28,202 nucleotides of DNA from a virus. Positions 1 to 15,843 of this stretch are shown here, in pieces. The position numbers and the translations under genes were made by a program. The DNA lies in IMG/VR virus record IMGVR_UViG_3300023172_003913, positions 1 to 28,202 of that record, one strand, 5' to 3'. Within the stretch, counting starts at the first letter, position 1; each line of letters opens with the position of its first letter. The notes beneath the pieces were generated by a model. That model was not told the DNA's origin. It saw only the letters and a list, made by a program, of their open reading frames with translations, and did not search any database.

Positions 1-125
1 TTTTGTATTTTAATATTATTATTAGGTAATCCTCCATGAATATTCCGTGGACACATAGGGCAAGATGCTTGGCAATTATTTGAAATTTCAATATGTATAC
101 TTTTTAATTCTACAAATTTAAACAT
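1..125 (-). CDS. Radical SAM protein, 3'-truncated by window edge
   Basis: Only the first 41 codons lie in the window; the gene runs off the left edge. It starts at the ATG at 125 and reads with no stop. The N-terminus carries the radical SAM cysteine motif CxxxCxxC (NNCQASCPMCPRNIHGG), which in this superfamily binds the [4Fe-4S] cluster that cleaves S-adenosylmethionine. It closely resembles the N-terminus of the next gene upstream (118-1224), so the two are tandem paralogues. Its start overlaps the stop of that gene by 8 bp (ATGTTTAA), implying translational coupling. Substrate unknown. The family call rests on the motif and on the intact paralogue. Confidence 0.8.
   Translation of the reverse strand, partial: MFKFVELKSIHIEISNNCQASCPMCPRNIHGGLPNNNIKIQ
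31..56. repeat. 26-bp direct repeat, copy 1
   Basis: Identical over 26 bp to 1130-1155. Both copies encode the CPxCPRNIHGG part of the radical SAM motif in tandem paralogous genes, which indicates recent duplication or gene conversion. Confidence 0.9.
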
Positions 126-1224
126 TTTTTACTTTTTGTTCCTCTAAAGATATAAAAGGACTTTTTTTATTGCACATTAAACTACATGATTTAATACCTG
201 TTGAATTCCATTTATTGTGCCATAATTTTTGCCAAGTCTCAGACGAGATTATACTTTTTAAAGACATTTTTTTACAATTTATTAAATCAAATCCTCCTAA
301 ACTTTCTATTAATTCAAACACTTCGTCTTTAATTTCTTGACCTATAATATTTACTGATGTATTTTCGTTATAAATTTTGTATTTTTTAAAAATATTATCA
401 TCAAAACTAGTATATACCCAGCTGGCTAATATGCAACACGGAAAAACAGTAAAATTAGCGTCAATGAATATACTTTTAGTGTTTATAGGAAAACAATCCA
501 ACTCTTGCATTGTAGACCAAAATAATTTTGTAGACAATAAATTATCTTTTGTAACAATAGGAATAGGATTAATAGTATTAGGTTCAAGATAATGAGAAAT
601 ATTACCTTTCCTGTCTAGCACTGGAAATTTATTAGTAGTAAATCTTCTTGTGTTTTTTAAAACAAATTTTTTAAAACCAATTTTTTTTGACAACAATTCT
701 GCTTGTTCAATTTGATGTTGATTGTGTTTAAAAAGTATAAATTGCCAATTTGCATTACCTCCTGAGGCTATAAAAGCCTTTGCATTTTCTATTATTTTAT
801 TAAAATCAGTATCTACTCTATATAAATGATTTGTATCAGCTAAGCCGTCTAATGCGAAAGTTACATCATGATTATAAGGTAAATATAAAATTAAATTTTT
901 CCACCAAGTAATATTTCTTAGACTACCGTTTGTATGAATATGAACATAAGTACTGGGATTATTTTCTTTTATATATTCTAAAATTTCTAGTAATTCAGTA
1001 TTAAGCAACGGATCTCCAAAATTACCACAAAACGTAAAATTTTCTATTTTATTTACAACATCTTTAGTAAATATATCTTTAAAATCATTAAAAGACCAAT
1101 CATTCAATTTTAATTCTTTATTTTCTATTCCTCCATGAATATTCCGTGGACACATCGGACATGCAGCTTGACATTTATTTGTAATTTCTAATTCTACAAT
1201 TTTTAATTTATCATAAGAAAACAT
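118..1224 (-). CDS. Radical SAM protein with SPASM-like C-terminal cysteines
   Basis: This 368-residue protein has the radical SAM motif at C18, C22 and C25 (NKCQAACPMC). A GNFGDP stretch at about residues 67-72 sits where the GGEP-type SAM-binding motif normally falls. The C-terminal half has C244, C263-C264, C317, C347 and C351, the spacing expected of a SPASM/twitch auxiliary iron-sulfur domain. SPASM enzymes commonly modify peptides or carry out sugar and cofactor chemistry; the substrate here cannot be read from the sequence. It is paralogous to the 10645-11877 gene, with a very conserved central block (DGLADTNHLYR near residues 126-136). The ATG overlaps the upstream stop by one base (TAATG), so it is probably translationally coupled to the B12-type radical SAM gene. 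Confidence 0.85.
   Translation of the reverse strand: MFSYDKLKIVELEITNKCQAACPMCPRNIHGGIENKELKLNDWSFNDFKDIFTKDVVNKIENFTFCGNFGDPLLNTELLEILEYIKENNPSTYVHIHTNGSLRNITWWKNLILYLPYNHDVTFALDGLADTNHLYRVDTDFNKIIENAKAFIASGGNANWQFILFKHNQHQIEQAELLSKKIGFKKFVLKNTRRFTTNKFPVLDRKGNISHYLEPNTINPIPIVTKDNLLSTKLFWSTMQELDCFPINTKSIFIDANFTVFPCCILASWVYTSFDDNIFKKYKIYNENTSVNIIGQEIKDEVFELIESLGGFDLINCKKMSLKSIISSETWQKLWHNKWNSTGIKSCSLMCNKKSPFISLEEQKVKNV
1130..1155. repeat. 26-bp direct repeat, copy 2
   Basis: Second copy of the 26-bp string at 31-56, located in the same codons of the upstream paralogue. Confidence 0.9.
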
Positions 1225-2765
1225 TATTCTTTCCAGTTTAATTTATTTTCAATATAATCATTTACAAAATTGATAAAAATTTCATCTGCCGTATCAATTT
1301 TTGTTATTAATTTATCATAAATGCTTTCATATTCCGTAGTTTTATAGTATACAAATAATCTATCACTAAGTATAGGGTTACATGCAAGTTTGCCTTTAAA
1401 TCCTTTATTCTTATCGTAAAATTCTTTTACTAATTCTTGCGCTCTATACCAATTCATTTCATTATGTTCCCAAATAACAATATTATCAAGCCTTGTTGTT
1501 CCTACACCGCCGCCTATAATACTCTTGAAAACAATTTGTCCTTTTTCATTCCTAGTAACATCATATCCAGGATTAGCTCTACTCGATTCCATTTGTTTTA
1601 TTCCGGCGTGTTTTAAATCTCTTGTAAATGTACTATCATTACTAAGATCAATTCCTGCTTCGGATATTTCTAAAATCCATGCACTTGAACTTTGTCTTAA
1701 CCAATTACTATTAAGCCATTCTAATGTGTTATACCAAGATTCTTCAGTTTCTAAGGGCAAGCCACAAATTAAATTTATTTGTCCTCTATACCTTCTAGGA
1801 GCATACTTATCAGTATATGTTTGAAAGTCTAAGAGCCCCTGTTTTAACCTATCAGGATCTATACCTTTCCTAATTAATTTACCAGCAGGACTACTAAATG
1901 TTTCAATGCCCATAGAATGGCCTAAAAAGCCTAATCTTAAATAATCATCCCAATATTTCTTATGCAAAACGACTAAATCACCTCTAGCAAATCCTGTAAA
2001 CCAAGGAGTAAAACTTAATTTTTCAACTACATCAGCATACTTTATTATTTTTTCAGGCCTATCATTAAAAGTTTCATCTATAAATCTCCAATTTTTAATA
2101 CCCCATTTGTCGTATCCCAATTTTAATTGTAATTGAAATTCATCTGCACTTATGCTTACATCTTTCGCCTGTCCTAATATTGGAAAATTACAATAAGAGC
2201 ATTGAAACATACACCCTCTAGATGTTTCTACTTGCGGACACTCATATTCTTTTAAAAAATCTCTTTTTTCATAATCAATCAAATAACTTTCTAATGGCGC
2301 ACTTGGATAAGCATGCAACCCTCTTATAACTTTTTTATCTTTTATTCTTGTGTCAAATGATAACGGAGTAGTTTTTGTTCCAATTAAAAATCTGCATAAA
2401 TTTAGCAGAGCATTTTCACCATAACTATCTATCCAAAAATCTACAGGTTCAGCAGGAGTAACAAGTGCATTTTGTCCACCGACTACTATAGGGATGTTTG
2501 GATACGTAGTTTTTAACCAAGACAAAAATTGATTCAAATGAACAGAATAAGGATTTAAAAATGAAGTTGCAAATACAAATGCTACTACATTATTGTTTAC
2601 TCTAGATTTTACAAATGCCTGTAACTGCTCTTCTTGCCAAAATGAGGTGAAATCAACAACTTCTGCATCCCAATCTTGTGTACGTAAAAAAGTAGCCACT
2701 CTATGAGACCAAATATTTCTTTCCCATCTTTTACCAGTTAAAGAGAAAAAAATAATTTTATTCAT
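1224..2765 (-). CDS. B12-binding-type radical SAM protein
   Basis: The 513-residue protein has an N-terminal Rossmann-like region (about 1-130, with IPIVVGGQNAL near 91-101) arranged like the cobalamin-binding domain of B12-dependent radical SAM enzymes. The radical SAM core follows, with C185, C189 and C192 in TSRGCMFQCSYC and further barrel landmarks: RFIDETFN near 227-234, MGIET near 285-289 and ICGLPLETEESW near 333-344. Class members catalyse methylations and ring rearrangements. I do not see the base-on DxHxxG cobalamin motif, so B12 may bind base-off without a histidine ligand or not at all. It starts at ATG 2765, overlapping the upstream stop as ATGA, and ends in TAATG with the next gene. 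The radical SAM call is firm; B12 dependence is inference. Confidence 0.85.
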   Translation of the reverse strand: MNKIIFFSLTGKRWERNIWSHRVATFLRTQDWDAEVVDFTSFWQEEQLQAFVKSRVNNNVVAFVFATSFLNPYSVHLNQFLSWLKTTYPNIPIVVGGQNALVTPAEPVDFWIDSYGENALLNLCRFLIGTKTTPLSFDTRIKDKKVIRGLHAYPSAPLESYLIDYEKRDFLKEYECPQVETSRGCMFQCSYCNFPILGQAKDVSISADEFQLQLKLGYDKWGIKNWRFIDETFNDRPEKIIKYADVVEKLSFTPWFTGFARGDLVVLHKKYWDDYLRLGFLGHSMGIETFSSPAGKLIRKGIDPDRLKQGLLDFQTYTDKYAPRRYRGQINLICGLPLETEESWYNTLEWLNSNWLRQSSSAWILEISEAGIDLSNDSTFTRDLKHAGIKQMESSRANPGYDVTRNEKGQIVFKSIIGGGVGTTRLDNIVIWEHNEMNWYRAQELVKEFYDKNKGFKGKLACNPILSDRLFVYYKTTEYESIYDKLITKIDTADEIFINFVNDYIENKLNWKE

Positions 2766-3424
2766 AATCGAAAACCACTTACTTTTTTTGTTGCATACTT
2801 ATTTGTGAGTAAAAGTTTAATTTTTTCAGCAAACCGTTTATTCTTTGATATAGTAAAATGATTTTCCACTATTTGATTTTCTCCTATAAGATGGTCATCG
2901 GCAAATTGAAATAATGCCTCGGACACTGTGATGCCTGTATGAAATTTTTTATTAGTTGGATATTTAAAACTATAAAAATGTATAACTTTTTCTATTGTTT
3001 TATATGATGAAATTATTTCGTCTAATTCTATATACCATTGTGTTACAGCCCATTCGCACCAAGGAGTAAAATATAAATGTTTGTAGTAATCTTTTGTGGC
3101 ATTCCATACTCCTAGAGGTATATTATTTGCAAATTTTTTAGTCTCATCGTACGTTGACATACTGTTTAAAGGATAGTTTTCATCACTCCATAATCTATTA
3201 GGATCAGTATGTATAATTATTAAAATACTAGGAGTGTAGTTATTTAAACAGTCAATTAACTGCTTTCTTGTAGACCACCACCCTGCACCTGAAAATCCAT
3301 TGCCCAAAGGTACATGATCATTATCATCTGGGAAAAGTAATTTTGTTAAATAATAAGGCCAATGTCTTTCTGTTTTCCTATAAGCACAAAAACTGTCGCC
3401 TACAATACATATGTTTTTATTCAT
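2762..3424 (-). CDS. SGNH/GDSL-like hydrolase family protein (short paralogue)
   Basis: The 220-residue protein opens with IVGDSFCAYR, resembling block I (GDS) of SGNH/GDSL esterases and acetyl-hydrolases. HTDPNR near 72-77 could be the block III equivalent, and NHF near 188-190 could supply the late histidine, but the classical DxxH spacing is not clear, so activity is uncertain. It is paralogous to the 265-residue gene at 4497-5294: both share GDSFC, a ...GWW/AWW block, the HTDxNR block and a final NH motif. In other systems such enzymes remove or transfer acyl groups on polysaccharides, which would suit neighbouring sugar-handling genes. It sits between the peroxidase (1-bp gap) and the B12-type radical SAM gene (ATGA overlap). 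Confidence 0.6.
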   Translation of the reverse strand: MNKNICIVGDSFCAYRKTERHWPYYLTKLLFPDDNDHVPLGNGFSGAGWWSTRKQLIDCLNNYTPSILIIIHTDPNRLWSDENYPLNSMSTYDETKKFANNIPLGVWNATKDYYKHLYFTPWCEWAVTQWYIELDEIISSYKTIEKVIHFYSFKYPTNKKFHTGITVSEALFQFADDHLIGENQIVENHFTISKNKRFAEKIKLLLTNKYATKKVSGFRL

Positions 3425-3425
3425 A

Positions 3426-3902
3426 TTATTTTTCTAAGATTTTTTCTATTTCTGATATTTCTGTAAAATGGTTAAAGCTATAAATTTTATTTTCATTTTT
3501 CCTAATTAAAAACTTATGGAAATTCCATTTAGGAGAAATTTTTACAATATTAAAAATCTCCTGATAATATTCTGAAATATTAGATCCAATTACATTTTTC
3601 TTAGGCAAAATCTCAAAAGTTATGTTATAAGTTGTTTTACAAAACTCTTGTATATCTCTATCATTTTCAAATTCTTGATTATTAAAATTACTAGATGGCT
3701 GGGCTATTATTAAAAGATCTTTTTGTTTGTAATTATTATGCAAAGCTTCTAAATCAGCATATTGTCTTGTAAACCCGCACTTACTTGCAGTATTTACTAG
3801 CAATATATTCGAAAAATTATATTTTTCAAAACATTTTGGTATATCTGTATCAAAAATTTTATTATCTTGCCATGTATTTTTTTTAAAAGTTTCAAAAGAC
3901 AT
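3426..3902 (-). CDS. Glutathione peroxidase-like thiol peroxidase
   Basis: The frame is open from a TTG at 3914, but the ATG at 3902 (fifth residue) is the more likely start and leaves an 11-bp overlap with the methyltransferase gene. The GPx fold signatures are clear. Numbering from the TTG, the peroxidatic Cys is C46 in NTASKCGFT, the catalytic Gln is Q80 in NFNNQEF, and the Trp-Asn pair W130-N131 lies in KWNFHKF, so the catalytic tetrad is complete. C92 in QEFCKTTY matches the resolving cysteine of two-cysteine, thioredoxin-linked GPx enzymes. The usual PCNQF block reads PSSNF. The size (about 158 residues) is normal for bacterial GPx. Known role: reduction of hydrogen or lipid peroxides. 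In a phage it may protect iron-sulfur enzymes or the infected cell, which is inference. Confidence 0.88.
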   Translation of the reverse strand: MSFETFKKNTWQDNKIFDTDIPKCFEKYNFSNILLVNTASKCGFTRQYADLEALHNNYKQKDLLIIAQPSSNFNNQEFENDRDIQEFCKTTYNITFEILPKKNVIGSNISEYYQEIFNIVKISPKWNFHKFLIRKNENKIYSFNHFTEISEIEKILEK

Positions 3903-4497
3903 TTTTTTTACCAATTATCATATATCTTGTATATTTTTCTGTTTCTAGTTCATCTTTAAGTAAAGTTGATATGTTAGATATTTTATCAAATTCATTTAAT
4001 GATTTAGAGCATCTTATGTGTTCTTCCAAACTAAAAAAATTATTACTTTGCAAAACAATCAAAGACGAACTACTTATCAAATTAAGCCAAGTATTGTAAG
4101 TATCTTGTTTAATATGTTCACAACTTGTATTAATTACAATATCTGCAGGATAATTGCAAACAGCCATGTCTGCTGTTACAGCTTCAAATCTACCTTCTAT
4201 TTCATAATTTTTATTCATTAAAGTAGCTATATCTTTACAACCTGGATCAATATCTACACTTATAATCTTATTAACATTTATGTCACTATTAAATATTAAA
4301 GACGATAAAACTCCATACCAACCGCCATAAATTACAATATTTTGTGGAGTATTATTACAATATTTCTTTAAATTTTCAATTAACCAAATCTTACTACGAA
4401 TTTGTCCTTTCCAAAAAGATTCTAAAGTTCTATAGCAATCATCGCTTTGTCTAATAGCATCCATCCAAAATAATATATCTTCTATCTTGATTTGCAT
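3892..4497 (-). CDS. Class I SAM-dependent methyltransferase-like protein
   Basis: The 201-residue protein has a Rossmann methyltransferase pattern: motif I as IYGGWYGVLSS (56-66), an acidic end of strand 2 as SVDIDP (80-85) that would bind the SAM ribose, TADMA (108-112) where the adenine contact is expected, and VINTSCEH (121-128) in the position of motif IV. An N-terminal helical stretch precedes the fold. The methyl acceptor cannot be deduced. Its ATG overlaps the stop of the upstream SGNH-like gene by one base (TAATG), and its end overlaps the peroxidase gene, so all three are probably cotranslated. I am fairly confident of the fold, not of the target. Confidence 0.72.
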   Translation of the reverse strand: MQIKIEDILFWMDAIRQSDDCYRTLESFWKGQIRSKIWLIENLKKYCNNTPQNIVIYGGWYGVLSSLIFNSDINVNKIISVDIDPGCKDIATLMNKNYEIEGRFEAVTADMAVCNYPADIVINTSCEHIKQDTYNTWLNLISSSSLIVLQSNNFFSLEEHIRCSKSLNEFDKISNISTLLKDELETEKYTRYMIIGKKNVF

Positions 4498-5294
4498 TAT
4501 TGCTGGTAGGGTCTAAGATACCGCATTGAAACATTATGTCCGTCGCGATAAGAAAAAGGGCTTAATAAATCACAAATAAATCTTGCAAACAATCTATTAT
4601 CTTGTATTGATAAATGATTACTAACTTCAATTTTAGGATCTTGTTCGCAGTAATGCCACAAAGAATCTCTTATAGTCATTCCATGCTGCCAAATAAAATC
4701 ACTACCTGCATTAAAACAATGGATATGTATTATTTTTTCGATACGTGGTGTTGTTTTCAATATGTTATCTAATTCTAGATACCATCTTATAGCAGCCCAT
4801 TGATGATATTCTGGTGAAAAAAGATACTTATAATAGTTTCCTGCTGCTTGCAGCCAATTCAAATCAACATCTTTGTAAATATGTTGCTTTCGTGTATTAA
4901 GATAATCTATAACTTCTATAGGCGATAATGGCAAGTTCTTTTCATTTGCTAATCGATTTAAATCGGTATGACAGATAATAAGAATTTTAGGAGTATGTAT
5001 TTTTATCTCTTTTAATAAATGCTCTCTAACAGCCCACCAGGCTCTACCTGGTAAACCCGTACCTCTTGGAATAAGTTCTTTATAATTGGAGACTTTTATT
5101 CCTTCATCTAGGGCAACTTGTTTAGCAACTATAAATGGCCAATGATTCTCATTCTCTCTATATAAACAAAAACTGTCACCTACTATTAACAAATCTTTCA
5201 TGCCTTCCATTTTTCGCTCGTTGCGTCTTGGTGTATATATATCCTTATTTGTTTTCTGTCCTATAAGAGGAAATTTAAGTTTGTTGGTTAACAT
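4497..5294 (-). CDS. SGNH/GDSL-like hydrolase family protein (long paralogue)
   Basis: The 265-residue protein is homologous along its length to the 2762-3424 gene but has about 30 extra N-terminal residues. The GDSFC block is at about 39-43, the HTDLNR block at about 109-114, and a late NHLS motif near residue 236 could hold a catalytic histidine. The ATG at 5294 overlaps the upstream radical SAM stop by one base (TAATG), which supports this start. The in-frame ATG at 5201 (residue 32) would align better with the short paralogue and cannot be excluded. A serine-hydrolase role on acylated sugars is a guess from the family; substrate unknown. Confidence 0.6.
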   Translation of the reverse strand: MLTNKLKFPLIGQKTNKDIYTPRRNERKMEGMKDLLIVGDSFCLYRENENHWPFIVAKQVALDEGIKVSNYKELIPRGTGLPGRAWWAVREHLLKEIKIHTPKILIICHTDLNRLANEKNLPLSPIEVIDYLNTRKQHIYKDVDLNWLQAAGNYYKYLFSPEYHQWAAIRWYLELDNILKTTPRIEKIIHIHCFNAGSDFIWQHGMTIRDSLWHYCEQDPKIEVSNHLSIQDNRLFARFICDLLSPFSYRDGHNVSMRYLRPYQQ

Positions 5295-6274
5295 TATTTT
5301 TCTTTAGGTATTTTACTATCTGCACTACTTACACAAGTATCTGTAATACATATATTTGGCCGATTATTTATTTTAAATCCTGTTACAATATCGCCGAGAT
5401 TTTGTTCTTTGCAACTATAACTTCTTTTAACTTCGGTATTTTTGATTATAATTCCTTGATAACCTGCATTACATTTCCAACCTTTAAATTTATTAAATCC
5501 AAAAGTATTTAACCGTTCTGCTTGATCTAACAAATATTTTTTATTTTCTTTATCATATAAATGTAATTGTGATATTTCTAAGCCTTTCCATTGTTGAACA
5601 AATCCTGTTTGCATTTTTTTAATATTATCAGCAGTGTATCCAGAAACAATCTGTGTTGCTGTAGTATTTGATTGCGGCTTTAAAGTTACATTTATCCCTA
5701 ATTTAAAAAATCTTTCACATCTTTCATAAAGGGAATCAAATTGTTCTGGAACCATTACTTGATTTATTGTAACAAATATATTATTATCTATAAGATACAA
5801 ACATTTATCAGCAAATTCATCTTCATTAGCAAATTCTGCATGAAAACTAGCCGTTATGCTAATTCTATGCAAGTTGTTTGTATTTTTTACAAATTTATTC
5901 CACCATTTTATTGCAGGAGATAAATTAGTAGTTAAGTGTAAACTTTGATAGTTAGGAGTTGAATCAGACTGATAAAAATCTATTAACTTGAGTAAATTTT
6001 TGTAAGCAGTAGGCTCTCCTCCACTAAAACTAAAATGGAAATTATTAAAACCATTTTCATTTGCTTGTTTTTTTATGTTAGTAATTGCATCAATATAAAT
6101 TTTTAGCTCCCGGTAGTCTACAATATCACTTCTAGCGTAAGGCCAACAATATGAACAATTATAATTACAAAATCTGCCTAAAATCCAAGACACTGTAAAT
6201 AAATCTGTTTCTAATAATGTAGATTGCCCAAGTTTGATAATATTATCAAACGGTATACTTTGAAAATTGCTCAT
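5294..6274 (-). CDS. Radical SAM protein with C-terminal auxiliary-cluster cysteines
   Basis: The 326-residue protein has the radical SAM triad C36, C40 and C43 (GRFCNYNCSYCWPY) and the SAM-binding GGEP motif at 85-88 (FSFSGGEP). The C-terminal part carries four more cysteines in the pattern KGWKCNAGYQG ... SYSC ... NIC ... DTC, a short twitch/SPASM-like arrangement likely to bind a second [4Fe-4S] cluster. Unlike several neighbours it has no N-terminal cysteine-rich extension. It starts at ATG 6274, overlapping the 3' end of the repeat-glycosyltransferase gene by 29 bp, and couples to the SGNH-like gene through TAATG. The reaction cannot be assigned. Confidence 0.85.
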   Translation of the reverse strand: MSNFQSIPFDNIIKLGQSTLLETDLFTVSWILGRFCNYNCSYCWPYARSDIVDYRELKIYIDAITNIKKQANENGFNNFHFSFSGGEPTAYKNLLKLIDFYQSDSTPNYQSLHLTTNLSPAIKWWNKFVKNTNNLHRISITASFHAEFANEDEFADKCLYLIDNNIFVTINQVMVPEQFDSLYERCERFFKLGINVTLKPQSNTTATQIVSGYTADNIKKMQTGFVQQWKGLEISQLHLYDKENKKYLLDQAERLNTFGFNKFKGWKCNAGYQGIIIKNTEVKRSYSCKEQNLGDIVTGFKINNRPNICITDTCVSSADSKIPKEK

Positions 6275-8132
6275 TTAACCATTGAAAATCATTTATTAAC
6301 TTCAATTTGTCTTTGTCTGTTTTAAATTTGCTTCCAAATTCTCTTCCTAGTATTGCACCACTTTTGGCATAATTACCATACTTTTTGTCTAACCCTATGT
6401 CAGAACACCAAATGTTTAATCTTTCTTCTGACTCCTCATTTTCTTGCCGATCAATTACTTTACTTGCAAGTTTTGCACATTCTCTAAATGCACTTTTCCA
6501 TGTACTAAATGGGTCTGTATTAAATACTGTTATATTTGATATAGCATCTACTAATTTAAACTTACTACTAATACTTGTGGTCATATCTGTAGAATTACGA
6601 TCCATATTTATAGTTAATTTCTTTGGTAATAATTTAACACCACCGTATCCATATACCAAACCATTTATAGGATTTGAACTTCTCCAAACATGAACAGCAT
6701 CTTGATCCCATTTAGCAACTTGATAAGAAAAATCAAAGTCATGCACAATATGAGCATCAGCATCTACTACCCAAAACATATTTGTATTAACTTTTTTTGC
6801 AGCAGCAATATGAGCATTATGGATTCCTTTAACATTTTCAACCCTGTGAATTACATAATCTTTAAATCTTTCTTCTAACATTTGAAAATTTTCATCTGCA
6901 TTTAGTTCAAAATATGATATGTAAACAATATCAAATTTTTTAGGAGAACTTATGTTTAAATTAATTTCTTTTTTGTTTGCAAAAAATTTATATTCTAACT
7001 CTTTTTCATAAATTTGCTTATTTTTGTTTAAACAAATTACTCCGTCAAAATATTTTTCATTTTTAAAAATATGAACTAAATCTTTTTCATTATATGGAAT
7101 TTGATAAGAAAAATTTAATTTAACATCTAAATCTTCTGATATAGCATAATAAAAATCTGTAGTAACTTTATCTCTTTTATGCATTAAATCATTATAGTTT
7201 TTATATGTAATTATATCATACTGTTTTGGAAAAGATGCTGATATTTCTATTTTTTTATTTTTTAAATAAAATCTGTAATTAAACTCTCTCTCAGTTATTC
7301 TTGAATCTTTATGACAAATTGATATACCATCATAATACTCTCCATGTTTAAAAACATGTACTAAATCCTTTTCGTAATAAGGAACTTGTTGTTCTAACTC
7401 TATATTTACTATTACATCAGAGTTAATTAAATAAAAAAAATCTGTTTTACAACTCTGCTTTGCTTCTAAGAAATCATAATAAGTATTACAAACAAATTTA
7501 TCATATTTCTTAGGCAAGCTAGCAACAATATCAATTTCTTTTTTATTTGCAAAAAATCTATATTCAAATTCTTTTTTGGATAACAAAATATCTTTATGTA
7601 CAATTATTATTCCATCAAAATAATCTTTATTTTTAAAAACATGAACTAAATCTTTTTCGTAGTACGGAACCTGATAATTAAAATTAAATTTTACATCTAA
7701 ATTATCCCATATTATGTAAAAAAAATCTGTTGTACTAATTTCTCTTGCTCGTAAATAATCATCATACGTTTTACAAGTATATGATTCATAATCTTTAGGC
7801 ACGCTTGCAACAATATCAATTTCTTTTTTGTTTACAAAAAATCTATAATTGCATTCTTTCTCTGACAACAAAGTATCTTTACTTAATAAAATTACACCAT
7901 CAAAATATTTTCCGTTTTTAAAGACATGAATATATTTTTCATCATGTTCATTTATTTTAAAATCTAAAATGACATCATCTTTAATGATTAAATTGTCCCA
8001 TAAAATCCAAAAAAACTTTGTAACTGATTTATCTTTTGCTTCTGAAATGCTAGACGCTTTTTTTAATGTTAAAAAATACTTCTTGTAAATTTTAAATATT
8101 TTATCTTGACCAATAAAAAAGATATCGTACAT
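6246..8132 (-). CDS. Glycosyltransferase-like protein with four degenerate N-terminal repeats
   Basis: The 628-residue protein has two parts. Residues 400-628 form a GT-A-like domain: a DAD metal-site motif at 457-459 (FWVVDADAHIV), YGYGGVKLL at 494-502 and TWKSAFREC near 544-551, all with counterparts in the 303-residue gene at 15836-16747. Residues 2-399 are four repeats. The last three are exactly 95 residues (115-209, 210-304, 305-399) and the first is longer (2-114). Each repeat resembles the middle of the GT domain (TDFFYxIxxDLDVxxNF ... DLVHVFKN ... FDGI), but the DAD site is degraded to WDN, NSD or SED, so the repeats look non-catalytic, perhaps binding or scaffold units. First gene of the left operon, starting at ATG 8132. 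Sugar and acceptor unknown. Confidence 0.65.
   Translation of the reverse strand: MYDIFFIGQDKIFKIYKKYFLTLKKASSISEAKDKSVTKFFWILWDNLIIKDDVILDFKINEHDEKYIHVFKNGKYFDGVILLSKDTLLSEKECNYRFFVNKKEIDIVASVPKDYESYTCKTYDDYLRAREISTTDFFYIIWDNLDVKFNFNYQVPYYEKDLVHVFKNKDYFDGIIIVHKDILLSKKEFEYRFFANKKEIDIVASLPKKYDKFVCNTYYDFLEAKQSCKTDFFYLINSDVIVNIELEQQVPYYEKDLVHVFKHGEYYDGISICHKDSRITEREFNYRFYLKNKKIEISASFPKQYDIITYKNYNDLMHKRDKVTTDFYYAISEDLDVKLNFSYQIPYNEKDLVHIFKNEKYFDGVICLNKNKQIYEKELEYKFFANKKEINLNISSPKKFDIVYISYFELNADENFQMLEERFKDYVIHRVENVKGIHNAHIAAAKKVNTNMFWVVDADAHIVHDFDFSYQVAKWDQDAVHVWRSSNPINGLVYGYGGVKLLPKKLTINMDRNSTDMTTSISSKFKLVDAISNITVFNTDPFSTWKSAFRECAKLASKVIDRQENEESEERLNIWCSDIGLDKKYGNYAKSGAILGREFGSKFKTDKDKLKLINDFQWLNEQFSKYTV
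6936..8129 (-). repeat. Four in-gene repeats, 285-bp period
   Basis: Within the 628-residue gene the coding sequence repeats with units at about 7791-8129, 7506-7790, 7221-7505 and 6936-7220. The last three have exactly equal length (95 codons). Similarity is visible in the DNA too, for example recurring catgaactaaatctttttc-like strings near 7081, 7360 and 7650. This indicates internal duplication of part of a glycosyltransferase-like domain. Confidence 0.85.
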
Positions 8133-8191: not shown

Positions 8192-8196
8192 ATAAC

Positions 8197-9471: not shown

Positions 9472-10661
9472 TTTTCTATCTTGTATTCTTCTGCTAAATC
9501 ATTAAAATATGGAACTGTTTGAAACAAGTTTTGATTTCTTTTACTATCAAATTTTTTTTGCTCTTTAAAAAAATCTATAATTTTATCTTTATCTTTTTTT
9601 ATTGTCAAAGCTTGTTTATATTGAGAAATTAAATCATTAATAGGTATATGTCTATAAACTGGTAACTCTGCTAATTTTTGCAAACCTTTTTCAATTATTA
9701 TATTAGGACAATTATTCAATATAGGTGTCCCTACAACAGGAATAAAGAAAAACGGTACCACTTTATTATGCATAACACAACATTTTTTTAGAAGTTTTGG
9801 AATAGATAATGCATTTATATTCTGTATTGTTGTAGCTATGCTTATTTGTACTTTTTCATTTTTAATTTTTTGCTGAATAATATTTAAATTCTTATAAACT
9901 TTGTCCCATTTTCCTGGCCATCTAATATATTCGTAAACTTCTTCTTCCCCATCTATGCTAACTTGTAAATTAATTTCTGCAAAATTATTCCATCTATCTA
10001 TAAAATCTTCAATTTTGTTTACCTGTAAATTTGTACTATAATTTATAGCTATTTGATTTGCTCTATTATTTTTTATAATTACATCTAATATTTCATCATG
10101 GAAATCATTTATTAAAGGTTCTCCACCTAACATGTAAATACATGCTAAATTTTTTGCTCTATAAATTAATTCTAAAACTTTATCTTTATTGTCTCTACTT
10201 AATTCGATATCATTTGGTATCTCTCTACCTTCTATTTCTGCTAATTGTTTAGCCAATAAACTACTGCTAGACCAATTACACATTCTACATGCAAGATTGC
10301 ATTTATTCCCTAATCCTATATCTAAATATCTTATATCCGAAAAATCTATTACTTTTTTCAAATTTAAGTTACTTACAGTATATCCATAAAATTTATTTTT
10401 ATTTGCAACATCTCTAAAACTTCTAGTACCTGCACTTTCCATTTGCCAACAACGATTACAAAAATTATGTTTTTTATTTTCTATAAAAGTTTCTCTAATA
10501 CCATAAATGTAATCATTATTAATTATTTCATCTACATTTAACGAATCTATATTCAATCCTGTTGGTATATATCCAGCATTGCAACAAACCCTAATCTCAC
10601 CATTAGATCCTAAGCTTACACTATTAAATGGTAATACACAATAGTTACTTAACACTATCAT
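9465..10661 (-). CDS. Radical SAM protein with N-terminal twitch-like domain
   Basis: The frame is open from TTG 10670, but ATG 10661 is the likelier start; GTG 10655 with AAAGGA five bases upstream is a real alternative. Numbering from 10661, the N-terminus has C8, C26-C27, C68 and C71 (SNGEIRVCCNAG ... FCNRCWQMESAGTRSFRD), the pattern of an N-terminal twitch domain that probably binds an auxiliary [4Fe-4S] cluster. The radical SAM core follows with C121, C125 and C128 (GNKCNLACRMC) and GGEPLIN about fifty residues later. It shares this architecture with the 11870-13084 gene. Its 5' end overlaps the upstream radical SAM gene and its end overlaps the dioxygenase gene by 7 bp. Substrate unknown. 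Confidence 0.87.
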   Translation of the reverse strand: MIVLSNYCVLPFNSVSLGSNGEIRVCCNAGYIPTGLNIDSLNVDEIINNDYIYGIRETFIENKKHNFCNRCWQMESAGTRSFRDVANKNKFYGYTVSNLNLKKVIDFSDIRYLDIGLGNKCNLACRMCNWSSSSLLAKQLAEIEGREIPNDIELSRDNKDKVLELIYRAKNLACIYMLGGEPLINDFHDEILDVIIKNNRANQIAINYSTNLQVNKIEDFIDRWNNFAEINLQVSIDGEEEVYEYIRWPGKWDKVYKNLNIIQQKIKNEKVQISIATTIQNINALSIPKLLKKCCVMHNKVVPFFFIPVVGTPILNNCPNIIIEKGLQKLAELPVYRHIPINDLISQYKQALTIKKDKDKIIDFFKEQKKFDSKRNQNLFQTVPYFNDLAEEYKIEKW

Positions 10662-11877
10662 CCTTTCCAATGTAACTATTACGCTTATTTCCTAATTCAC
10701 CAAAGTCTAATCCGTTCCATTCTACTCCACAGCATTGTCCACATTTATAAGGACGCATAGATGTATTTCCTCTTTCATTATCCCAAGTATCAGGCAAAAA
10801 TTTTTGAAAAGTATCTTTTTTTAATATATCCCATAAATTATTTTTATGAATATTAAATTCATCAACTCCTCCATCTAACTCTAACATTTTTAAATAATTT
10901 TCATCCGCACTCCTTTCCTTTTGATCTTGAAACGGTTCGGATCCTAAAAAACAACAAGGCGCAACAAACCCATTTGCGCTAATAAAAATTTCATTAAAAT
11001 TTATATTATCTCTTACTTTAGCAATACTTCTACATTTTATATTAAGAGAATTTAATGGAATTTGTTCCCACTTATCTTTTACCCATCGTAAATCATTTTG
11101 AATATGTCCTTGTAAATTCCTAAAATCATCAATAGTTATACTTTGCTTATCTTGATTTTTAAAATAAGTTGCATCCTCAAAATTATGTTTAAAGACACTG
11201 TCTAATGGCTGTTGTAAATCATACAAATATTTTCCATTTTCAAAAACTTGATAGCTTCCTTGATTATTATCATATCTTTGCCATCTTGTTGTTCTCTTTA
11301 CATTGAAATTTCGAAATCCCATCTCTTTAGCTAGTTGATAGGCTTCTTGTACCTGATGCTCATTGTGTTTAAAAACAATGTAATCCCAATGAGCTACTCC
11401 ACCTCCATCAATAAAAGCTTTTGCATTTTCTATTATTTTGTTAAAATCTGTTTTCCGTCGATATAAATGATTTGTATCTGCTAACCCGTCAATACTAAAG
11501 GTGCAATAATTTCCTAAATTATGTTCTCTACGCATTACTTTACCTAGTCTATGCCACCAATCTGGTGTTCTTAAACTACCATTAGTATTGCAAGCCAAGC
11601 CTATAGTTGGAGAAATTTCTCTAACATACTCATAAATATCTACAAACTCTCTGCAAGCGCAAGGGTCTCCAAAATTACCACAAGCTAAAATTTTCTTTAA
11701 ATTATTATTTAAAAAATCTTCAGGCCAAGAATTTATAAATCCTTCCAATGTCCACTCTGTATTAGCAAGAGTTTTTAATTCATATCCATCACTAGTAAAT
11801 CTGGGACACATTGGACATCTACTATTACATTTATCAGAAGGTTCCCAGTGAACCTGAAACTTTGTACCATTAAACAT
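10645..11877 (-). CDS. Radical SAM protein with SPASM-like C-terminal domain
   Basis: The 410-residue protein has C17, C21 and C24 (SDKCNSRCPMC), a CGNFGDP stretch near 66-72 in place of GGEP, and C-terminal cysteines C282, C308-C309, C379 and C382-C383 (GFVAPCCFLG ... YKCGQCCG) as expected of a SPASM-like auxiliary-cluster domain. It is the full-length paralogue of the 118-1224 gene 9 kb away; the block DGLADTNHLYR ... DFNKIIENAKAFI is nearly invariant between them and also similar in DNA. It starts at ATG 11877, overlapping the upstream stop by 8 bp (ATGTTTAA), the same junction found at 118-125. Likely modifies a peptide or sugar by radical chemistry; which one is unknown. Confidence 0.87.
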   Translation of the reverse strand: MFNGTKFQVHWEPSDKCNSRCPMCPRFTSDGYELKTLANTEWTLEGFINSWPEDFLNNNLKKILACGNFGDPCACREFVDIYEYVREISPTIGLACNTNGSLRTPDWWHRLGKVMRREHNLGNYCTFSIDGLADTNHLYRRKTDFNKIIENAKAFIDGGGVAHWDYIVFKHNEHQVQEAYQLAKEMGFRNFNVKRTTRWQRYDNNQGSYQVFENGKYLYDLQQPLDSVFKHNFEDATYFKNQDKQSITIDDFRNLQGHIQNDLRWVKDKWEQIPLNSLNIKCRSIAKVRDNINFNEIFISANGFVAPCCFLGSEPFQDQKERSADENYLKMLELDGGVDEFNIHKNNLWDILKKDTFQKFLPDTWDNERGNTSMRPYKCGQCCGVEWNGLDFGELGNKRNSYIGKDDSVK

Positions 11878-13084
11878 TAAAATAATCCTTTAACATATAA
11901 AAATATTCTGGAAATGTTTTTTCAAAAGATTCATTTCTAAATTTATCTCGCATTTTTATTTCTTTACACCAATTTGTCCATGCAATATTACAAAAACTGT
12001 TTTTCGAATTTTTTAATAAAGCACAAATCATATCTTTTTGTTTTTTCCAATCCATAGGATCATGCTTACTTTTTGTTTGAGAAATTTTTTCAATTAATTG
12101 CGATTTAATTTCCCATGGAAGAATTCTAACTCCTCTATGATCATGAACTGTATTAATATACATCCTTAAACCTTTTGCAGCATAGTGCTCATATGTTTCA
12201 AAAAAATCGAAAGCATTAAATGCACTTAAACTAAGACAGGCACCTACTAACCATTCTGTTTCATTTTTTTCTTTTTCTTTTAAAAAATTATCTATAACTT
12301 CTTCTGATTTATCCCAATTTGCCCCATGTCTTAAATATTCAAACTTAGGACCTACTCCGTCAGAGCTAACTTGTATATCTATAACTTTGAATTTATTTAA
12401 AATATTAATCTGTTTATCTGGGAAAATAGTTCCATTTGTATTATAATGAACTACTTGATTGTGACTGTATCCATTATCTACACAATACTTTAAAATTTTC
12501 CAATGTGATTCTATATAAAAAGGTTCTCCGCCTGCAAAATCAAAATGTTCTGCATATTCTAATAATTCTTTAATATCTTCCCAAACAAATTTATTATCTT
12601 TATGAAAGCTTTCTGTTCCAATTCTAAACTTATCCTGCTTCATAAAGCCTTTTACATCATTAGGACTTTGTAATTCAGCTTCTTCTTGTAACCACGGTGT
12701 ACTATGCGTAGGCGCACAAATTCTACATTTGATGTTACATAAATTGCCCATGCTTAAATCTAAAACAATTGGCAAAGATTTAAAAGATAAATCTAACTCT
12801 CTTTCTTGATATTTCTTATTATCACGTATCCGTTTACTTTCTTTACCTGCATCCTCTTCTTTCCAACAAGTAATACATTCTGGTATTCTCATACCTTTTT
12901 CTAATTGATCAGCAAAATCTTTTCTAGAATTACTAAACCAAAAATCTTTTATACTTGCTTCATTCAGACGTGTATGGCCTTCATTTGTTGTTAAGTATTT
13001 GTCTGTTAAACAACAAGGACGTATAGCACCGCTAGGATGAATACTTAAATTCATATACGCATTAACACATTTTGTATCACTCAT
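11870..13084 (-). CDS. Radical SAM protein with N-terminal twitch-like domain
   Basis: The frame is open from GTG 13105, but ATG 13084 is preferred because it gives an 8-bp ATGAGTGA overlap with the upstream stop, a junction type repeated in this operon. The resulting 404-residue protein has N-terminal cysteines C6, C24-C25, C70 and C73 (GAIRPCCLTD ... ECITCWKEEDAGKESKRIRD) as a twitch-like cluster site, then the radical SAM triad C116, C120 and C123 (GNLCNIKCRIC) and FAGGEPFYIES as the SAM-binding motif. The remaining barrel carries VSSDGVG, typical of this superfamily. Close in architecture to the 9465-10661 gene. Substrate not deducible. Confidence 0.87.
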   Translation of the reverse strand: MSDTKCVNAYMNLSIHPSGAIRPCCLTDKYLTTNEGHTRLNEASIKDFWFSNSRKDFADQLEKGMRIPECITCWKEEDAGKESKRIRDNKKYQERELDLSFKSLPIVLDLSMGNLCNIKCRICAPTHSTPWLQEEAELQSPNDVKGFMKQDKFRIGTESFHKDNKFVWEDIKELLEYAEHFDFAGGEPFYIESHWKILKYCVDNGYSHNQVVHYNTNGTIFPDKQINILNKFKVIDIQVSSDGVGPKFEYLRHGANWDKSEEVIDNFLKEKEKNETEWLVGACLSLSAFNAFDFFETYEHYAAKGLRMYINTVHDHRGVRILPWEIKSQLIEKISQTKSKHDPMDWKKQKDMICALLKNSKNSFCNIAWTNWCKEIKMRDKFRNESFEKTFPEYFYMLKDYFNV

Positions 13085-14444
13085 AATTCTTATATACCTT
13101 TTCACATAAAAGATAAAAATCTGTATATTCAGGAAAAGTTTTTTGTAAATTTGTACCTAATCTTTTATCATTTTCTGTAAAAAATACATAAAAATCTCTC
13201 CTACCTCTTTTTATCAATTCCTCAGACACTGGGTTAGCAAATGCATAATCTCGCACTCTTCGCATTTTCTCAAACTCTACATCTGTAAACCATTTTTTAT
13301 TTTCTTTTATAAAATCTAAATTAGCATCCATGTTTGATTGTAAAAAATCATTAGGCAAAATATTTAACATCCAATGTGGTGGTTCTTTTAAATAAGGCGT
13401 ATCAAATTGCAACTGGTGCATAGGAATTTTCATTCCTAAATTAGATCTCCAATCTATAACTTTTTCTAAAAAATTCTTAAATGTTGCAACACATAAAACA
13501 TTAAAAGTACACATTAAACCTACTTTAAAATCTCTACGAATAGCTTCTTTTAAATTATTTTCCCAATGTTCTGTTTTTAAACCTGTCCTCATATACTCTG
13601 CTTGCTCGCCCCATCCTTCAATACTAGTATACAAGGAAAAAGAACGTATTTTTTTATTATCTAATAAGCTTTGTATTCTTGTGTACAATCTATTAATTTT
13701 TTGTTTACTTACCCCTAAATTACTATTAAGACTTATATCTAACTGCGGCGCTGGTTCTTTTTCTAACAAATCAAAAAATTGCATTGCACCTGGATTCATT
13801 AGGGGCTCTCCTCCTGTTATTCTTAGCGTACTAAGGTCTTTTCTTAATTCAGGCCACCATTTCCAAAACGCTTCTATATAAGGATTATCATCTTTAGGTC
13901 GATAATATCTACCTGAATCTAAAAATTCGATCCCATATTGGTTATAAGTTAAATCATAATTACCATATTTTTCTATTTCTTCCATCCATAACGTGCTTGC
14001 TTGAGGACAACAGTAACCACATCTATAATTACATCCATTTCCAAAACTTACCTCAAGATATTTTGGATTTATATCGGCATCCCATGGCATCTTTCCTAGC
14101 TTTTCTATTTCATCGACTGCATAATCACTTGAACTATGTATCATTCTATCGCTAATATGATCTCCACCTAAATTTTCTATATTCCAACAATAATAACACT
14201 CTTCCGGCCTTTCACCTTCTAGCATTTTTTTACGTTGCTCTTTTTTCCAAGACGTGTTATGCAACGCACTAGGATTGTCCTTTATTTCATCTATGCTAAT
14301 ATGATGTGGTCTTGGATGATAACAACTATGATTATCACCTGTATGCAAATATAATGTTTGATGAAGCCACTTCATTGCACAAAAACCATTACCAATTTTA
14401 TTCAGTCTATCTCTTGTATTTTTTATTAAATCAACCTTTTGCAT
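13077..14444 (-). CDS. Radical SAM protein with variant N-terminal twitch domain (SCYHP type)
   Basis: The 455-residue protein has a distinct N-terminal cysteine set, C22, C41, C83 and C86 (FCAMKW ... HSCYHPRPHH ... ECYYCWNIENLGG), likely ligands of an auxiliary cluster. The radical SAM motif is C138, C142 and C145 with an extra adjacent C146 (GNGCNYRCGYCC), followed by ITGGEPLMNP. It is the intact sister of the frameshifted gene immediately upstream in the operon; both share SCYHP, NPSALHNT and EQRKKML/EQRKLML blocks. It begins at ATG 14444 inside the 3' end of that gene (19-bp overlap) and ends in an 8-bp overlap with the next. Function beyond radical SAM chemistry is unknown. Confidence 0.87.
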   Translation of the reverse strand: MQKVDLIKNTRDRLNKIGNGFCAMKWLHQTLYLHTGDNHSCYHPRPHHISIDEIKDNPSALHNTSWKKEQRKKMLEGERPEECYYCWNIENLGGDHISDRMIHSSSDYAVDEIEKLGKMPWDADINPKYLEVSFGNGCNYRCGYCCPQASTLWMEEIEKYGNYDLTYNQYGIEFLDSGRYYRPKDDNPYIEAFWKWWPELRKDLSTLRITGGEPLMNPGAMQFFDLLEKEPAPQLDISLNSNLGVSKQKINRLYTRIQSLLDNKKIRSFSLYTSIEGWGEQAEYMRTGLKTEHWENNLKEAIRRDFKVGLMCTFNVLCVATFKNFLEKVIDWRSNLGMKIPMHQLQFDTPYLKEPPHWMLNILPNDFLQSNMDANLDFIKENKKWFTDVEFEKMRRVRDYAFANPVSEELIKRGRRDFYVFFTENDKRLGTNLQKTFPEYTDFYLLCEKVYKNYE

Positions 14445-14836
14445 TCTTCAATAAACTCTTTTAATTCAGGAAACGTAGAAAATATATCTGTATTTCTTCT
14501 ATTATCATGTTGTTCAAAAAATAAATAAAAATTTTGCTTTGCTATTTTTTCTTGTTCTATATTTAGTGGCTCTTTTGCCCAGTTGTAAAGCCTTCTGATT
14601 TTATCAACTTCAAAATCTTTAAATCCTTTAAATCTGTTATTATTTGTCTCAGGGTTTTGTTCCATAAAATTAATACTTTTTGACAATTCTTCAAGCAAAA
14701 AACTAGGAGCTAATTTCATAGATAACCATAACGGATGATGTAACATAGGAACGTCAAACCATATTAATTGTCTATCATCATTTAATTCTATCCGTAAATT
14801 TAGTATTTCTTTTATAAAATTTAACCAGTTAGGCAA
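14426..14836 (-). pseudogene. C-terminal part of frameshifted radical SAM gene
   Basis: This frame encodes the missing C-terminus of the 14821-15843 gene. Its residues (PNWLNFIKEILNLRIEL, HHPLWLSMKL, NTDIFSTFPELKEFIEECKRL) align with the tail of the 455-residue sister (FKNFLEKVIDWRSNLG, EPPHWMLNI, GTNLQKTFPEYTDFYLLCEKV). The only start near its beginning is a TTG with no ribosome binding site, so it is unlikely to be a separate gene. Read together with the N-terminal part after a single-base correction near 14877-14881 it gives one protein of normal length for this family. It may be a broken gene or an assembly indel. Confidence 0.8.
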
Positions 14837-15843
14837 AGATAAAATATTTGCAGTAATAATAAATGTAAGGCTATGCTTTTTCCTGTTTTTAGATAATCAA
14901 CAATATTTTTATGCAAAACTGAAAAATCTAATCCATTCCTTATATATTCTGCTTGTTTACCCCAAGAGTCTAAACTACAAAACAACATAAAATGATCTAT
15001 ACAATTATTTTCTGTAATATATTTTAAGCTTTGTAAAAATTTTGACCATTGCTGACCTGGTGGACAACAGTTACTGGTAATACTTAAATTTAAATCGGCT
15101 TTCGGATGTTTTTTTATAAATTCAAACACTTTAAAAGTATTCTTATCCATTAAAGGTTCTCCGCCAGTCATCCTAAAAGTTTTTAAATCATTATATATAT
15201 TTGGAAACCATTGCCAAAACGCAAGTGTATATGGATTGTCTGGAGAATTATCTATTTTTAAGCTTTCTACCCAACTAGGATCATTGTGCTTTGAATCAAT
15301 TAATTTGTAAGCCCCATGTTCTAGCACTTCTTTATGCCATTCTGTAGATAAATGCGGACTACAATAAGAACATTTAAAATTGCAAGCTTGGTTAAAATTA
15401 ACTTCTAAATATCTAGGGTTAGGATTATCAGTTGGGCCTTTACTTAGAATATCATCTATTAAATTAGGCTCATATACGTCTTTACTTCGATATGCTCTAT
15501 CACTTATATTTCCTTGATCTTCGATTTCCCAACAAAAAGAACATTCATTTGGTCGCTTACCTTTTAACATTAATTTTCTTTGTTCTTTTTTGTATGCTGT
15601 ATTATGAAGAGCAGAGGGATTTTTATTCAATTCTTCTAAAGGAATATTATGCGACGGAGGATGATAACAACTATGAGTTTTACCCGTAGGTAAGTGTAAA
15701 CTTACGTTATACCATTTTGCTAAACAAAAACTTGGGCTTACATTATTTAAAATATCTAAAATATTTTTTGTTTTTTCAAAATACTCACTGTTGTATTTGC
15801 CTTTGTAAAGGTTAACTTTATCACCTTTAATATCTTCAAGCAC
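14821..15843 (-). CDS. Radical SAM protein, SCYHP twitch type, N-terminal part before frameshift
   Basis: As read, the product is 340 residues: a twitch-like N-terminus with C40, C59, C101 and C104 (FCLAKW ... HSCYHP ... ECSFCWEIEDQG), then the radical SAM triad C154, C158 and C161 (NQACNFKCSYC) and MTGGEPLMDK. The last ~23 residues (after LKTGK) do not match the sister gene at 13077-14444, while an adjacent frame does, so the reading frame is broken near residue 320. The start is GTG 15843, well supported by AGGAG shortly upstream and an 8-bp overlap with the preceding stop. The catalytic core is intact; the lost C-terminus is the end of the barrel and following helices. Confidence 0.85.
   Translation of the reverse strand: MLEDIKGDKVNLYKGKYNSEYFEKTKNILDILNNVSPSFCLAKWYNVSLHLPTGKTHSCYHPPSHNIPLEELNKNPSALHNTAYKKEQRKLMLKGKRPNECSFCWEIEDQGNISDRAYRSKDVYEPNLIDDILSKGPTDNPNPRYLEVNFNQACNFKCSYCSPHLSTEWHKEVLEHGAYKLIDSKHNDPSWVESLKIDNSPDNPYTLAFWQWFPNIYNDLKTFRMTGGEPLMDKNTFKVFEFIKKHPKADLNLSITSNCCPPGQQWSKFLQSLKYITENNCIDHFMLFCSLDSWGKQAEYIRNGLDFSVLHKNIVDYLKTGKSIALHLLLLQIFYLCLTG
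14877..14881 (-). other. Frameshift site in a homopolymer
   Basis: The coding strand reads GGAAAAAGC here. Adding one A (or slipping back one base on AAA) joins the two frames as TGKKHSLTF, which continues the alignment with the sister gene. A five-A run is a typical place for a sequencing indel or a phase mutation. Confidence 0.7.

What the first reader, a model, noticed from the sequence alone, without database searches (positions are those of the whole stretch)
1..15843. Nine radical SAM genes of several architectures in one phage region
Seen: nine CxxxCxxC proteins (1-125, 118-1224, 1224-2765, 5294-6274, 9465-10661, 10645-11877, 11870-13084, 13077-14444, 14426-15843) within 16 kb. There are three cysteine layouts plus a B12-type and a shorter form: C-terminal SPASM-like, N-terminal twitch-like, and a twitch variant with SCYHP. 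Known: SPASM/twitch radical SAM enzymes often modify ribosomal peptides or build unusual sugars and cofactors, and each needs one or more [4Fe-4S] clusters. Inference: a phage-encoded multi-step radical pathway, costly in iron, with an undetermined product. This is the best candidate for an undescribed system in the window.
Basis: partly seen in the sequence, partly recalled or inferred. Interest (0 to 1): 0.88.

Follow-up and report, generated by a model that had tools for sequence, protein, structure and literature searches.

The report
Radical SAM genes behind phage tail fibres
A large uncultured T4-like phage carries at least eight radical SAM enzyme genes as the variable end of a conserved block of tail-fibre and glycosyltransferase genes, which points to an unusual chemical (probably sugar) decoration of its tail whose product is still unknown.

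Summary
The cluster is real. Eight radical SAM genes plus a 41-aa fragment of a ninth lie in the first 16 kb; one (14426-15843) is frameshifted here but intact in a sibling contig. They are not a free-standing pathway. They are the variable 3' end of a conserved block: tail proteins, a 117-aa protein, two GT8-like and one GT-A glycosyltransferase, a protein of unknown function, often a fourth glycosyltransferase, then 0 to 9 radical SAM genes. In a scan anchored only on the tail protein, 32 of 33 distinct loci have both glycosyltransferases and radical SAM genes downstream. Of 119 blocks whose end is visible, 44 have none. Selection is strongly purifying (median dN/dS 0.04-0.08). There is almost no room for a peptide precursor and almost no membrane protein, so a separate RiPP or a phage-supplied Wzx/Wzy O-antigen pathway is unlikely. 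Best reading, at moderate confidence: the enzymes tailor a glycan (or residues) on the tail fibre. Radical-SAM-rich T4-like phages are already published; the tail-fibre/glycosyltransferase linkage, the with/without polymorphism and the shared gene set with chromosomal islands of Bdellovibrionota I did not find described. No product, substrate or activity is shown.

The parts
1..125 (-). N-terminal fragment (41 aa) of a ninth radical SAM gene, cut by the contig end; resembles the gene at 118-1224
   Evidence: translation, CQASCPMC; two sibling contigs also end just after the 118-1224 gene
118..1224 (-). radical SAM protein with C-terminal cysteine set (SPASM-like), family W118
   Evidence: PF04055 39.5 bits; 33% identical to 10645-11877; HMM matches in Pelagibacter phage Mosig and Campylobacter phage CP220
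1224..2765 (-). radical SAM protein with weak N-terminal B12-binding match
   Evidence: PF04055 37.0 bits; PF02310 18.7 bits, below cut-off; only 5 relatives in viral contigs
2762..3424 (-). protein with N-terminal GDSF motif (SGNH-hydrolase-like by motif only)
   Evidence: no Pfam hit
3426..3914 (-). glutathione-peroxidase-like protein
   Evidence: PF00255 86 bits
3892..4497 (-). putative SAM methyltransferase, family W3892 (assignment by eye)
   Evidence: no Pfam hit; homologue in Pelagibacter phage Mosig annotated as methyltransferase, E 5e-56
4497..5294 (-). second GDSF-motif protein
   Evidence: no Pfam hit
5294..6274 (-). short radical SAM protein with late cysteines, family W5294
   Evidence: PF04055 40.0 bits; 49% identical to a Bdellovibrionota chromosomal protein
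6246..8132 (-). repeat-containing glycosyltransferase-like protein, family W6246
   Evidence: weak PF00535 E 2e-4; C-terminal part resembles 15836-16747 by eye
8197..8847 (+). Rossmann/SDR-like protein on the opposite strand (by eye)
   Evidence: no Pfam hit
8836..9471 (-). 2OG-Fe(II)-oxygenase-like protein (by eye)
   Evidence: no Pfam hit
9465..10670 (-). rSAM-5, N-terminal twitch radical SAM
   Evidence: NF033640 263 bits, cut-off 170
10645..11877 (-). rSAM-4, radical SAM with C-terminal SPASM
   Evidence: PF13186 23.1 bits, cut-off 21.5
11870..13105 (-). rSAM-3, N-terminal twitch radical SAM
   Evidence: NF033640 275 bits; PF13186 25.2 bits at residues 13-81
13077..14444 (-). rSAM-2, N-terminal twitch radical SAM, SCYHP variant; the commonest radical SAM of the module
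   Evidence: NF033640 298 bits; 193 relatives in viral contigs; C22, C41, H43, C83, C86, C138, C142, C145, C312, C318 invariant in 14 sequences
14426..15843 (-). rSAM-1, N-terminal twitch radical SAM, SCYHP variant, split here by a 1-base deletion into 14821-15843 and 14426-14836
   Evidence: NF033640 256 and 45 bits for the two halves; intact in L003
15836..16747 (-). GT-A-fold glycosyltransferase, core of the module
   Evidence: AlphaFold2 pLDDT 85; best PDB matches glycosyltransferases SunS, TarP, WrtF, E about 1e-4 but TM about 0.3
16752..17312 (-). fast-evolving core protein of unknown function
   Evidence: beside the glycosyltransferases in 38 of 40 and 66 of 66 module loci; no Pfam hit
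17305..18138 (-). GT8-like glycosyltransferase, core of the module (assignment by sequence reading)
   Evidence: weak NF045582; present in 66 of 66 loci
18128..19030 (-). second GT8-like glycosyltransferase, core of the module (assignment by sequence reading)
   Evidence: present in 66 of 66 loci
19023..19376 (-). 117-aa conserved core protein
   Evidence: A3 alignment; at least 472 relatives in viral contigs
19435..20346 (-). tail structural protein; homologue in PA5oct detected in virions
   Evidence: HMM E 5e-87 to PA5oct gp360, which the record notes as ESI-MS/MS detected
20379..25853 (-). three related tail-fibre proteins (20379, 21912, 23838); the last has a tail-collar-like end
   Evidence: PHROG tail families; homologues in PA5oct, Phosso, Atu_ph07
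25857..26483 (-). tail/baseplate protein, 52-56% identical to Phosso and Atu_ph07 proteins in the same position

Best explanation
The radical SAM genes are the variable, tailoring end of a late phage module that decorates the tail fibre. The conserved core glycosyltransferases most likely build a short glycan in the cytoplasm on a tail-fibre protein (or on a soluble intermediate). The radical SAM enzymes, with the GDSx proteins, methyltransferases, oxygenases and epimerases that vary with them, then most likely change that glycan by steps such as dehydrogenation, epimerisation, deoxygenation or methylation, giving each phage a different surface. Shown: gene order, linkage, polymorphism, purifying selection, glycosyltransferase fold. 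Inferred: that the product is a glycan, that the tail fibre carries it, and every chemical step.
For: Conserved order of tail fibres, tail protein, 117-aa protein, GT, GT, unknown, GT(-A), [GT], radical SAMs in loci fetched by three independent anchors: 66 of 66 loci from the 117-aa protein, 22 of 40 from the glycosyltransferase, and 32 of 33 from the tail protein alone, a query containing no radical SAM or glycosyltransferase. Radical SAM count 0-9 over 119 blocks, 44 with none; in the one read in full (L239) the block ends at ThyX. GDSx-motif proteins occur in 37 of 110 blocks with radical SAM and 0 of 44 without, and are enriched over other proteins of the same contigs, 45/134 against 40/697. 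NAD-dependent epimerases (PF01370, 142 bits) occur in 11 loci. 15836-16747 models as a GT-A glycosyltransferase. Tail-protein homologues are virion proteins by mass spectrometry in PA5oct. 98.9% coding, mostly overlapping genes, no gap over 64 bp, as in one transcription unit with the tail fibres. In the isolates Phosso and Atu_ph07 the same giant gene, tail protein and fibre are also followed by several radical SAM genes. Median dN/dS 0.04-0.08.
Against: No radical SAM protein here can be tied to a characterised sugar-modifying enzyme: no solved-structure relative by sequence, and the rSAM-2 model is poor (pLDDT 66), its weak matches including peptide modifiers (anSME, EpeE) as well as sugar or nucleoside enzymes (AprD4, BlsE). 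The Phosso and Atu_ph07 operons show radical SAM genes behind the fibre without recognised glycosyltransferases, which would fit direct protein modification. GDSx and GT8 assignments rest on motifs, not Pfam. Loci were sampled by similarity and are not independent.
Confidence: 0.45

Rival explanations
1. Host-surface remodelling: the glycosyltransferases and radical SAM enzymes change the host's lipopolysaccharide or capsule late in infection, to keep other phages out or to stop progeny from re-adsorbing. This is what the pelagimyophage authors propose for glycosyltransferases of their host-recognition cluster.
For: Published reading for a neighbouring gene region (PMC7029224). GT8 enzymes are known for LPS core assembly (own knowledge), and core modification needs no phage membrane protein.
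Against: Only 5 of 936 module genes have a predicted membrane segment, while the same rule finds 7 in the flippase RfbX and 5 in the polymerase WbbH, so no Wzx/Wzy pathway is supplied. Tight linkage to tail-fibre genes and apparent co-transcription with late genes.
Confidence: 0.25
2. Direct radical post-translational modification of tail-fibre residues (cross-links, methylation, epimerisation) by the radical SAM enzymes, independent of the glycosyltransferases.
For: Many SPASM/twitch enzymes act on proteins or peptides (own knowledge). In Phosso and Atu_ph07 radical SAM genes with a cupin protein follow the fibre, and no glycosyltransferase was recognised there.
Against: In the window's own family the radical SAM genes appear only on top of a glycosyltransferase core. 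The GDSx proteins and epimerases that vary with them fit sugars better.
Confidence: 0.15
3. A ribosomal peptide natural product or other secreted small molecule.
For: Weak profile similarity to RiPP maturases such as PapB, mycofactocin, YhhB.
Against: No intergenic space above 64 bp for a precursor, no transporter or protease seen, and constant linkage to tail genes. A precursor embedded in a larger protein is not excluded.
Confidence: 0.08
4. Decaying or chance cluster of captured genes.
For: rSAM-1 is broken in two of three near-identical contigs, by different changes.
Against: dN/dS 0.04-0.08 across the radical SAM families, a recurring rSAM-1, 2, 3, 4, 5 order, and 66-78% identity of rSAM-2 across viral contigs.
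Confidence: 0.03

Closest known systems
Radical SAM clusters of Campylobacter phages CP220 and CPt10 (Timms et al. 2010, PMC2853527)
   Same: T4-related phage with 11-12 radical SAM genes, a five-gene interchangeable module mixed with nucleotide-sugar-transferase-like proteins; W118- and W10645-type relatives
   Different: Not placed behind the tail-fibre block; no N-terminal twitch SCYHP pair found; no glycosyltransferase core of the type seen here; function proposed there as metabolic advantage
Host-recognition cluster of pelagimyophages (PMC7029224; Pelagibacter phage Mosig)
   Same: Variable island beside tail-fibre genes with radical SAM cassettes and glycosyltransferases; Mosig has W118-, W5294- and W3892-type genes
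   Different: No match to the N-twitch enzyme rSAM-2 or to two core glycosyltransferases in any of 50,697 phage records
T4-like environmental genome TARA_ERS488813_N000010 with 12 radical SAM genes (PMC5332604)
   Same: Similar number of radical SAM genes in a T4-like phage
   Different: Read there as Fe-S cluster economy; gene context not described in the text I read; sequence not compared here
Glycosylated mycobacteriophage virions (Freeman et al. 2023, as cited in PMC12619734)
   Same: Phage glycosyltransferases linked to modified capsid and tail proteins
   Different: No radical SAM enzymes mentioned there; homology to the proteins here not tested
NCBIfam NF033640, twitch-domain radical SAM proteins, and their islands in Bdellovibrionota
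   Same: Same enzyme family; the islands also carry GT, methyltransferase and GDSx genes
   Different: Chromosomal; no tail genes seen in the islands; function unknown

Membership tests
Radical SAM superfamily (PF04055) | Profile match and CxxxCxxC | tested here: met
   CxxxCxxC in all eight full-length or split genes; six above cut-off and two slightly below in hmmscan; eight matches at E <= 1e-3
NF033640 N-terminal twitch radical SAM | Score above 170 bits | tested here: met
   9465, 11870, 13077, 14821: 256-298 bits
NF033640 N-terminal twitch radical SAM | Auxiliary [4Fe-4S] cluster bound by the N-terminal cysteines | not testable with these tools
   Four N-terminal Cys invariant in rSAM-2; cluster binding needs spectroscopy
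SPASM radical SAM | PF13186 above cut-off | tested here: met
   10645 (C-terminal) and 11870 (N-terminal) met; 9465 16.8 bits, not met; 118 no match
B12-dependent radical SAM | PF02310 above cut-off | tested here: not met
   1224-2765: 18.7 against 32.1 bits; fold-level B12 binding not tested
RiPP biosynthetic cluster | Precursor peptide gene next to the enzymes | tested here: not met
   No intergenic gap above 64 bp; embedded precursors not excluded
Wzx/Wzy O-antigen cluster | Membrane flippase and polymerase | tested here: not met
   5 of 936 module genes with any predicted membrane segment; control detected RfbX and WbbH
GT-A glycosyltransferase (15836-16747) | GT-A fold with DxD motif | tested here: met
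   Model pLDDT 85, top Foldseek hits glycosyltransferases though low TM; D65 and D67 invariant
Virion glycosylation system | Glycan attached to virion protein | not testable with these tools
   Needs mass spectrometry

The most novel reading that the evidence does not exclude
A phage-encoded radical glycan-tailoring pathway that writes a variable, chemically unusual decoration on tail fibres, built from an enzyme repertoire shared and exchanged with chromosomal islands of predatory Bdellovibrionota.
Probability: 0.33. Interest if true: 0.85.

Novelty: new variant of a known kind. Interest (0 to 1): 0.62.

Why it matters
Radical SAM genes in T4-like phages have been noted since 2010 without a function. 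Tying them to a tail-fibre/glycosyltransferase block, with a natural series of 0 to 9 such genes at the same place, turns the question into a direct test: look for an unexplained mass on tail proteins. If true it would be a new way for phages to diversify receptor binding or shield their tails, and a source of new radical chemistry. The isolated phages Phosso and Atu_ph07 have the same tail genes followed by other radical SAM genes, so a related case can be studied in the laboratory now.

Tried and rejected
Structure prediction of rSAM-2 (14 sequences): mean pLDDT 66, only weak matches to several radical SAM classes, so not used for function. Solved-structure sequence search: nothing for rSAM-2; for the GT-A protein only an ammonium-transporter fragment match judged spurious. 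Search of 50,697 phage records for the N-twitch enzyme and two core glycosyltransferases: no match. Pfam on the 117-aa protein, the 16752-type protein, the GDSx proteins and the core GT8-like proteins: nothing significant. Programmed frameshifting for 14426-15843: rejected because the sibling gene is open without it. DNA hypermodification: considered because some related contigs carry QueE-like genes, but the glycosyltransferases sit with tail genes and no link was found; not tested further. The paper on moraphages (PMC12619734) was read in part and describes another lineage. Host: not determined.
Full report
WHAT IS THERE. The window is a 28,202-base IMG/VR virus record, about 29% G+C, no tRNA, 98.9% coding, nearly all genes on the minus strand and overlapping. 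Profile searches confirm the superfamily. Four belong to the curated family NF033640, radical SAM proteins with an N-terminal twitch domain; one is a B12-like type with only a weak B12 match, one is short, and two carry cysteines at the C-terminal end. The gene read as 14426-15843 is split here by one missing A in a homopolymer. A near-identical contig (L003) has it whole, and another (L004) has a different in-frame stop. Two independent breaks in three close relatives may be sequencing errors or real loss; I cannot tell.

WHERE IT SITS. Upstream on the same strand come tail-fibre proteins and a tail protein whose homologues in Pseudomonas phage PA5oct were detected in virions by mass spectrometry according to the record. 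In a near-identical sibling contig the region further upstream is one open frame of at least 4,666 codons. The same arrangement (giant virion gene, small tail protein 52-56% identical, fibre, then radical SAM genes) occurs in two isolated jumbo phages, Sinorhizobium phage Phosso and Agrobacterium phage Atu_ph07. Their radical SAM genes are only distant relatives of the window's, so the position is conserved rather than the enzymes.

A CONSERVED MODULE WITH A VARIABLE END. Relatives were fetched from viral contigs with six queries. With families defined by HMMs, the order is: fibres, tail protein (19435), 117-aa protein (19023), GT (18128), GT (17305), unknown (16752), GT-A (15836), often another GT (6246), then radical SAM genes in a recurring order 14821, 13077, 11870, 10645, 9465. 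Starting from the 117-aa protein, 66 of 66 loci with enough sequence have radical SAM genes; starting from the glycosyltransferase, 22 of 40. To remove anchor bias I searched with the tail protein alone: 32 of 33 distinct loci had both glycosyltransferases and radical SAM genes downstream, the other only a glycosyltransferase. Over 119 distinct blocks whose end is visible (or that show over 9 kb) the number of radical SAM genes is 0 (44), 1 (30), 2 (8), 4 (13), 5 (10), 6 (4), 7 (5), 8 (3), 9 (2). In a block without them that was read in full (L239), the glycosyltransferases are followed directly by a ThyX-like gene and genes like those that also flank blocks with them. These counts depend on how loci were fetched and are not independent samples.

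SELECTION. dN/dS between moderately diverged pairs has medians of 0.081 (rSAM-1), 0.043 (rSAM-2), 0.076 (rSAM-3), 0.056 (rSAM-4) and 0.062 (rSAM-5), similar to the glycosyltransferases. dS is near saturation in some pairs, but decay is excluded for the families.

WHAT IT PROBABLY DOES. The neighbour at 15836 models with good confidence as a GT-A glycosyltransferase. Its best structural matches are glycosyltransferases, including peptide S-glycosyltransferases SunS and ThuS, but with low TM-scores, so only the class is supported. Genes that come and go with the radical SAM genes include GDSx-motif proteins (37 of 110 blocks with, 0 of 44 without), NAD-dependent epimerases, and by sequence reading methyltransferases, oxygenases and carbamoyltransferases. 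That is the gene company of sugar tailoring. Membrane proteins are nearly absent, 5 of 936, with a control that detects the E. coli flippase and polymerase, so a phage-supplied Wzx/Wzy surface polymer is unlikely and a cytoplasmic acceptor is favoured. There is no space for a separate precursor peptide gene. With the linkage to the tail, I favour tailoring of a tail-fibre glycan (0.45), over change of the host surface (0.25) and direct protein modification (0.15).

A SECOND RESERVOIR. Outside phages, close relatives of rSAM-2 come mainly from Bdellovibrionota. Strong NF033640 matches occur in 14 of 48 further Bdellovibrionota genomes, 1 of 149 Pseudomonadota and 0 of 147 Bacteroidota. Chromosomal islands there hold many N-twitch enzymes with the C-terminal-Cys, short and B12-like types, window-like glycosyltransferases and a methyltransferase. 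The window's short enzyme is 49% identical to one of them along its length. In a quick tree phage and bacterial sequences are interleaved, 13 label changes for cellular rows, so genes have moved repeatedly. Whether such phages infect Bdellovibrionota is unknown; similar gene types also occur in an isolated Pelagibacter phage.

PRIOR WORK. Many radical SAM genes in T4-like phages are known: CP220/CPt10 (PMC2853527), a 12-gene environmental genome (PMC5332604), pelagimyophage host-recognition clusters (PMC7029224). I found no description of the tail-fibre/glycosyltransferase/radical SAM block, of its with/without series or of the Bdellovibrionota link in the papers searched; the library is incomplete.

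Noticed in passing
L388/L389, L390/L391, L392 (Bdellovibrionota chromosomes): Islands with up to about a dozen N-twitch radical SAM genes in 30 kb plus glycosyltransferase, methyltransferase and GDSx genes; one genome has 18 strong NF033640 matches.
   Followed up: partly
window 14821-15843 / 14426-14836; L003; L004: rSAM-1 is disrupted in two of three near-identical contigs by different single-base changes (missing A here, TAT to TAA in L004).
   Followed up: partly
window 1-125; ends of L083 and L084: The window and two sibling contigs break just after the same radical SAM gene, where a further tandem paralogue begins, as if a tandem array defeats assembly; more such genes may lie beyond.
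   Followed up: partly
L393:2-13999: Sibling contig has one open frame of at least 4,666 codons upstream of the tail proteins; giant virion genes lie in the same position in Atu_ph07, Phosso and PA5oct.
   Followed up: no
window 6246-8132: Glycosyltransferase-like protein with several degenerate internal repeats ahead of a complete domain; its length varies widely among relatives (about 230 to 870 aa), perhaps by repeat number.
   Followed up: no
L389:9267-10343 and L002:14512-15573: An amidinotransferase-like protein occurs both in a Bdellovibrionota radical SAM island and in the Campylobacter phage CP220 radical SAM cluster, 24% identical, E 6e-27.
   Followed up: partly
window 3426-3914: Glutathione-peroxidase-like gene among the radical SAM genes; an annotated peroxiredoxin gene lies in the corresponding island of Pelagibacter phage Mosig.
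   Followed up: no
L018:17361-18224, L239:20241-20882: Radical-SAM QueE-like genes (by eye) close to the block in related contigs, suggesting deazaguanine DNA or tRNA modification in the same phages.
   Followed up: no
L219, L222, L200: An SCHHP-type relative of rSAM-2 sits behind galactosyltransferase-like genes in low-GC contigs with NDP-sugar epimerase-like genes, possibly phage contigs binned into bacterial genomes.
   Followed up: partly
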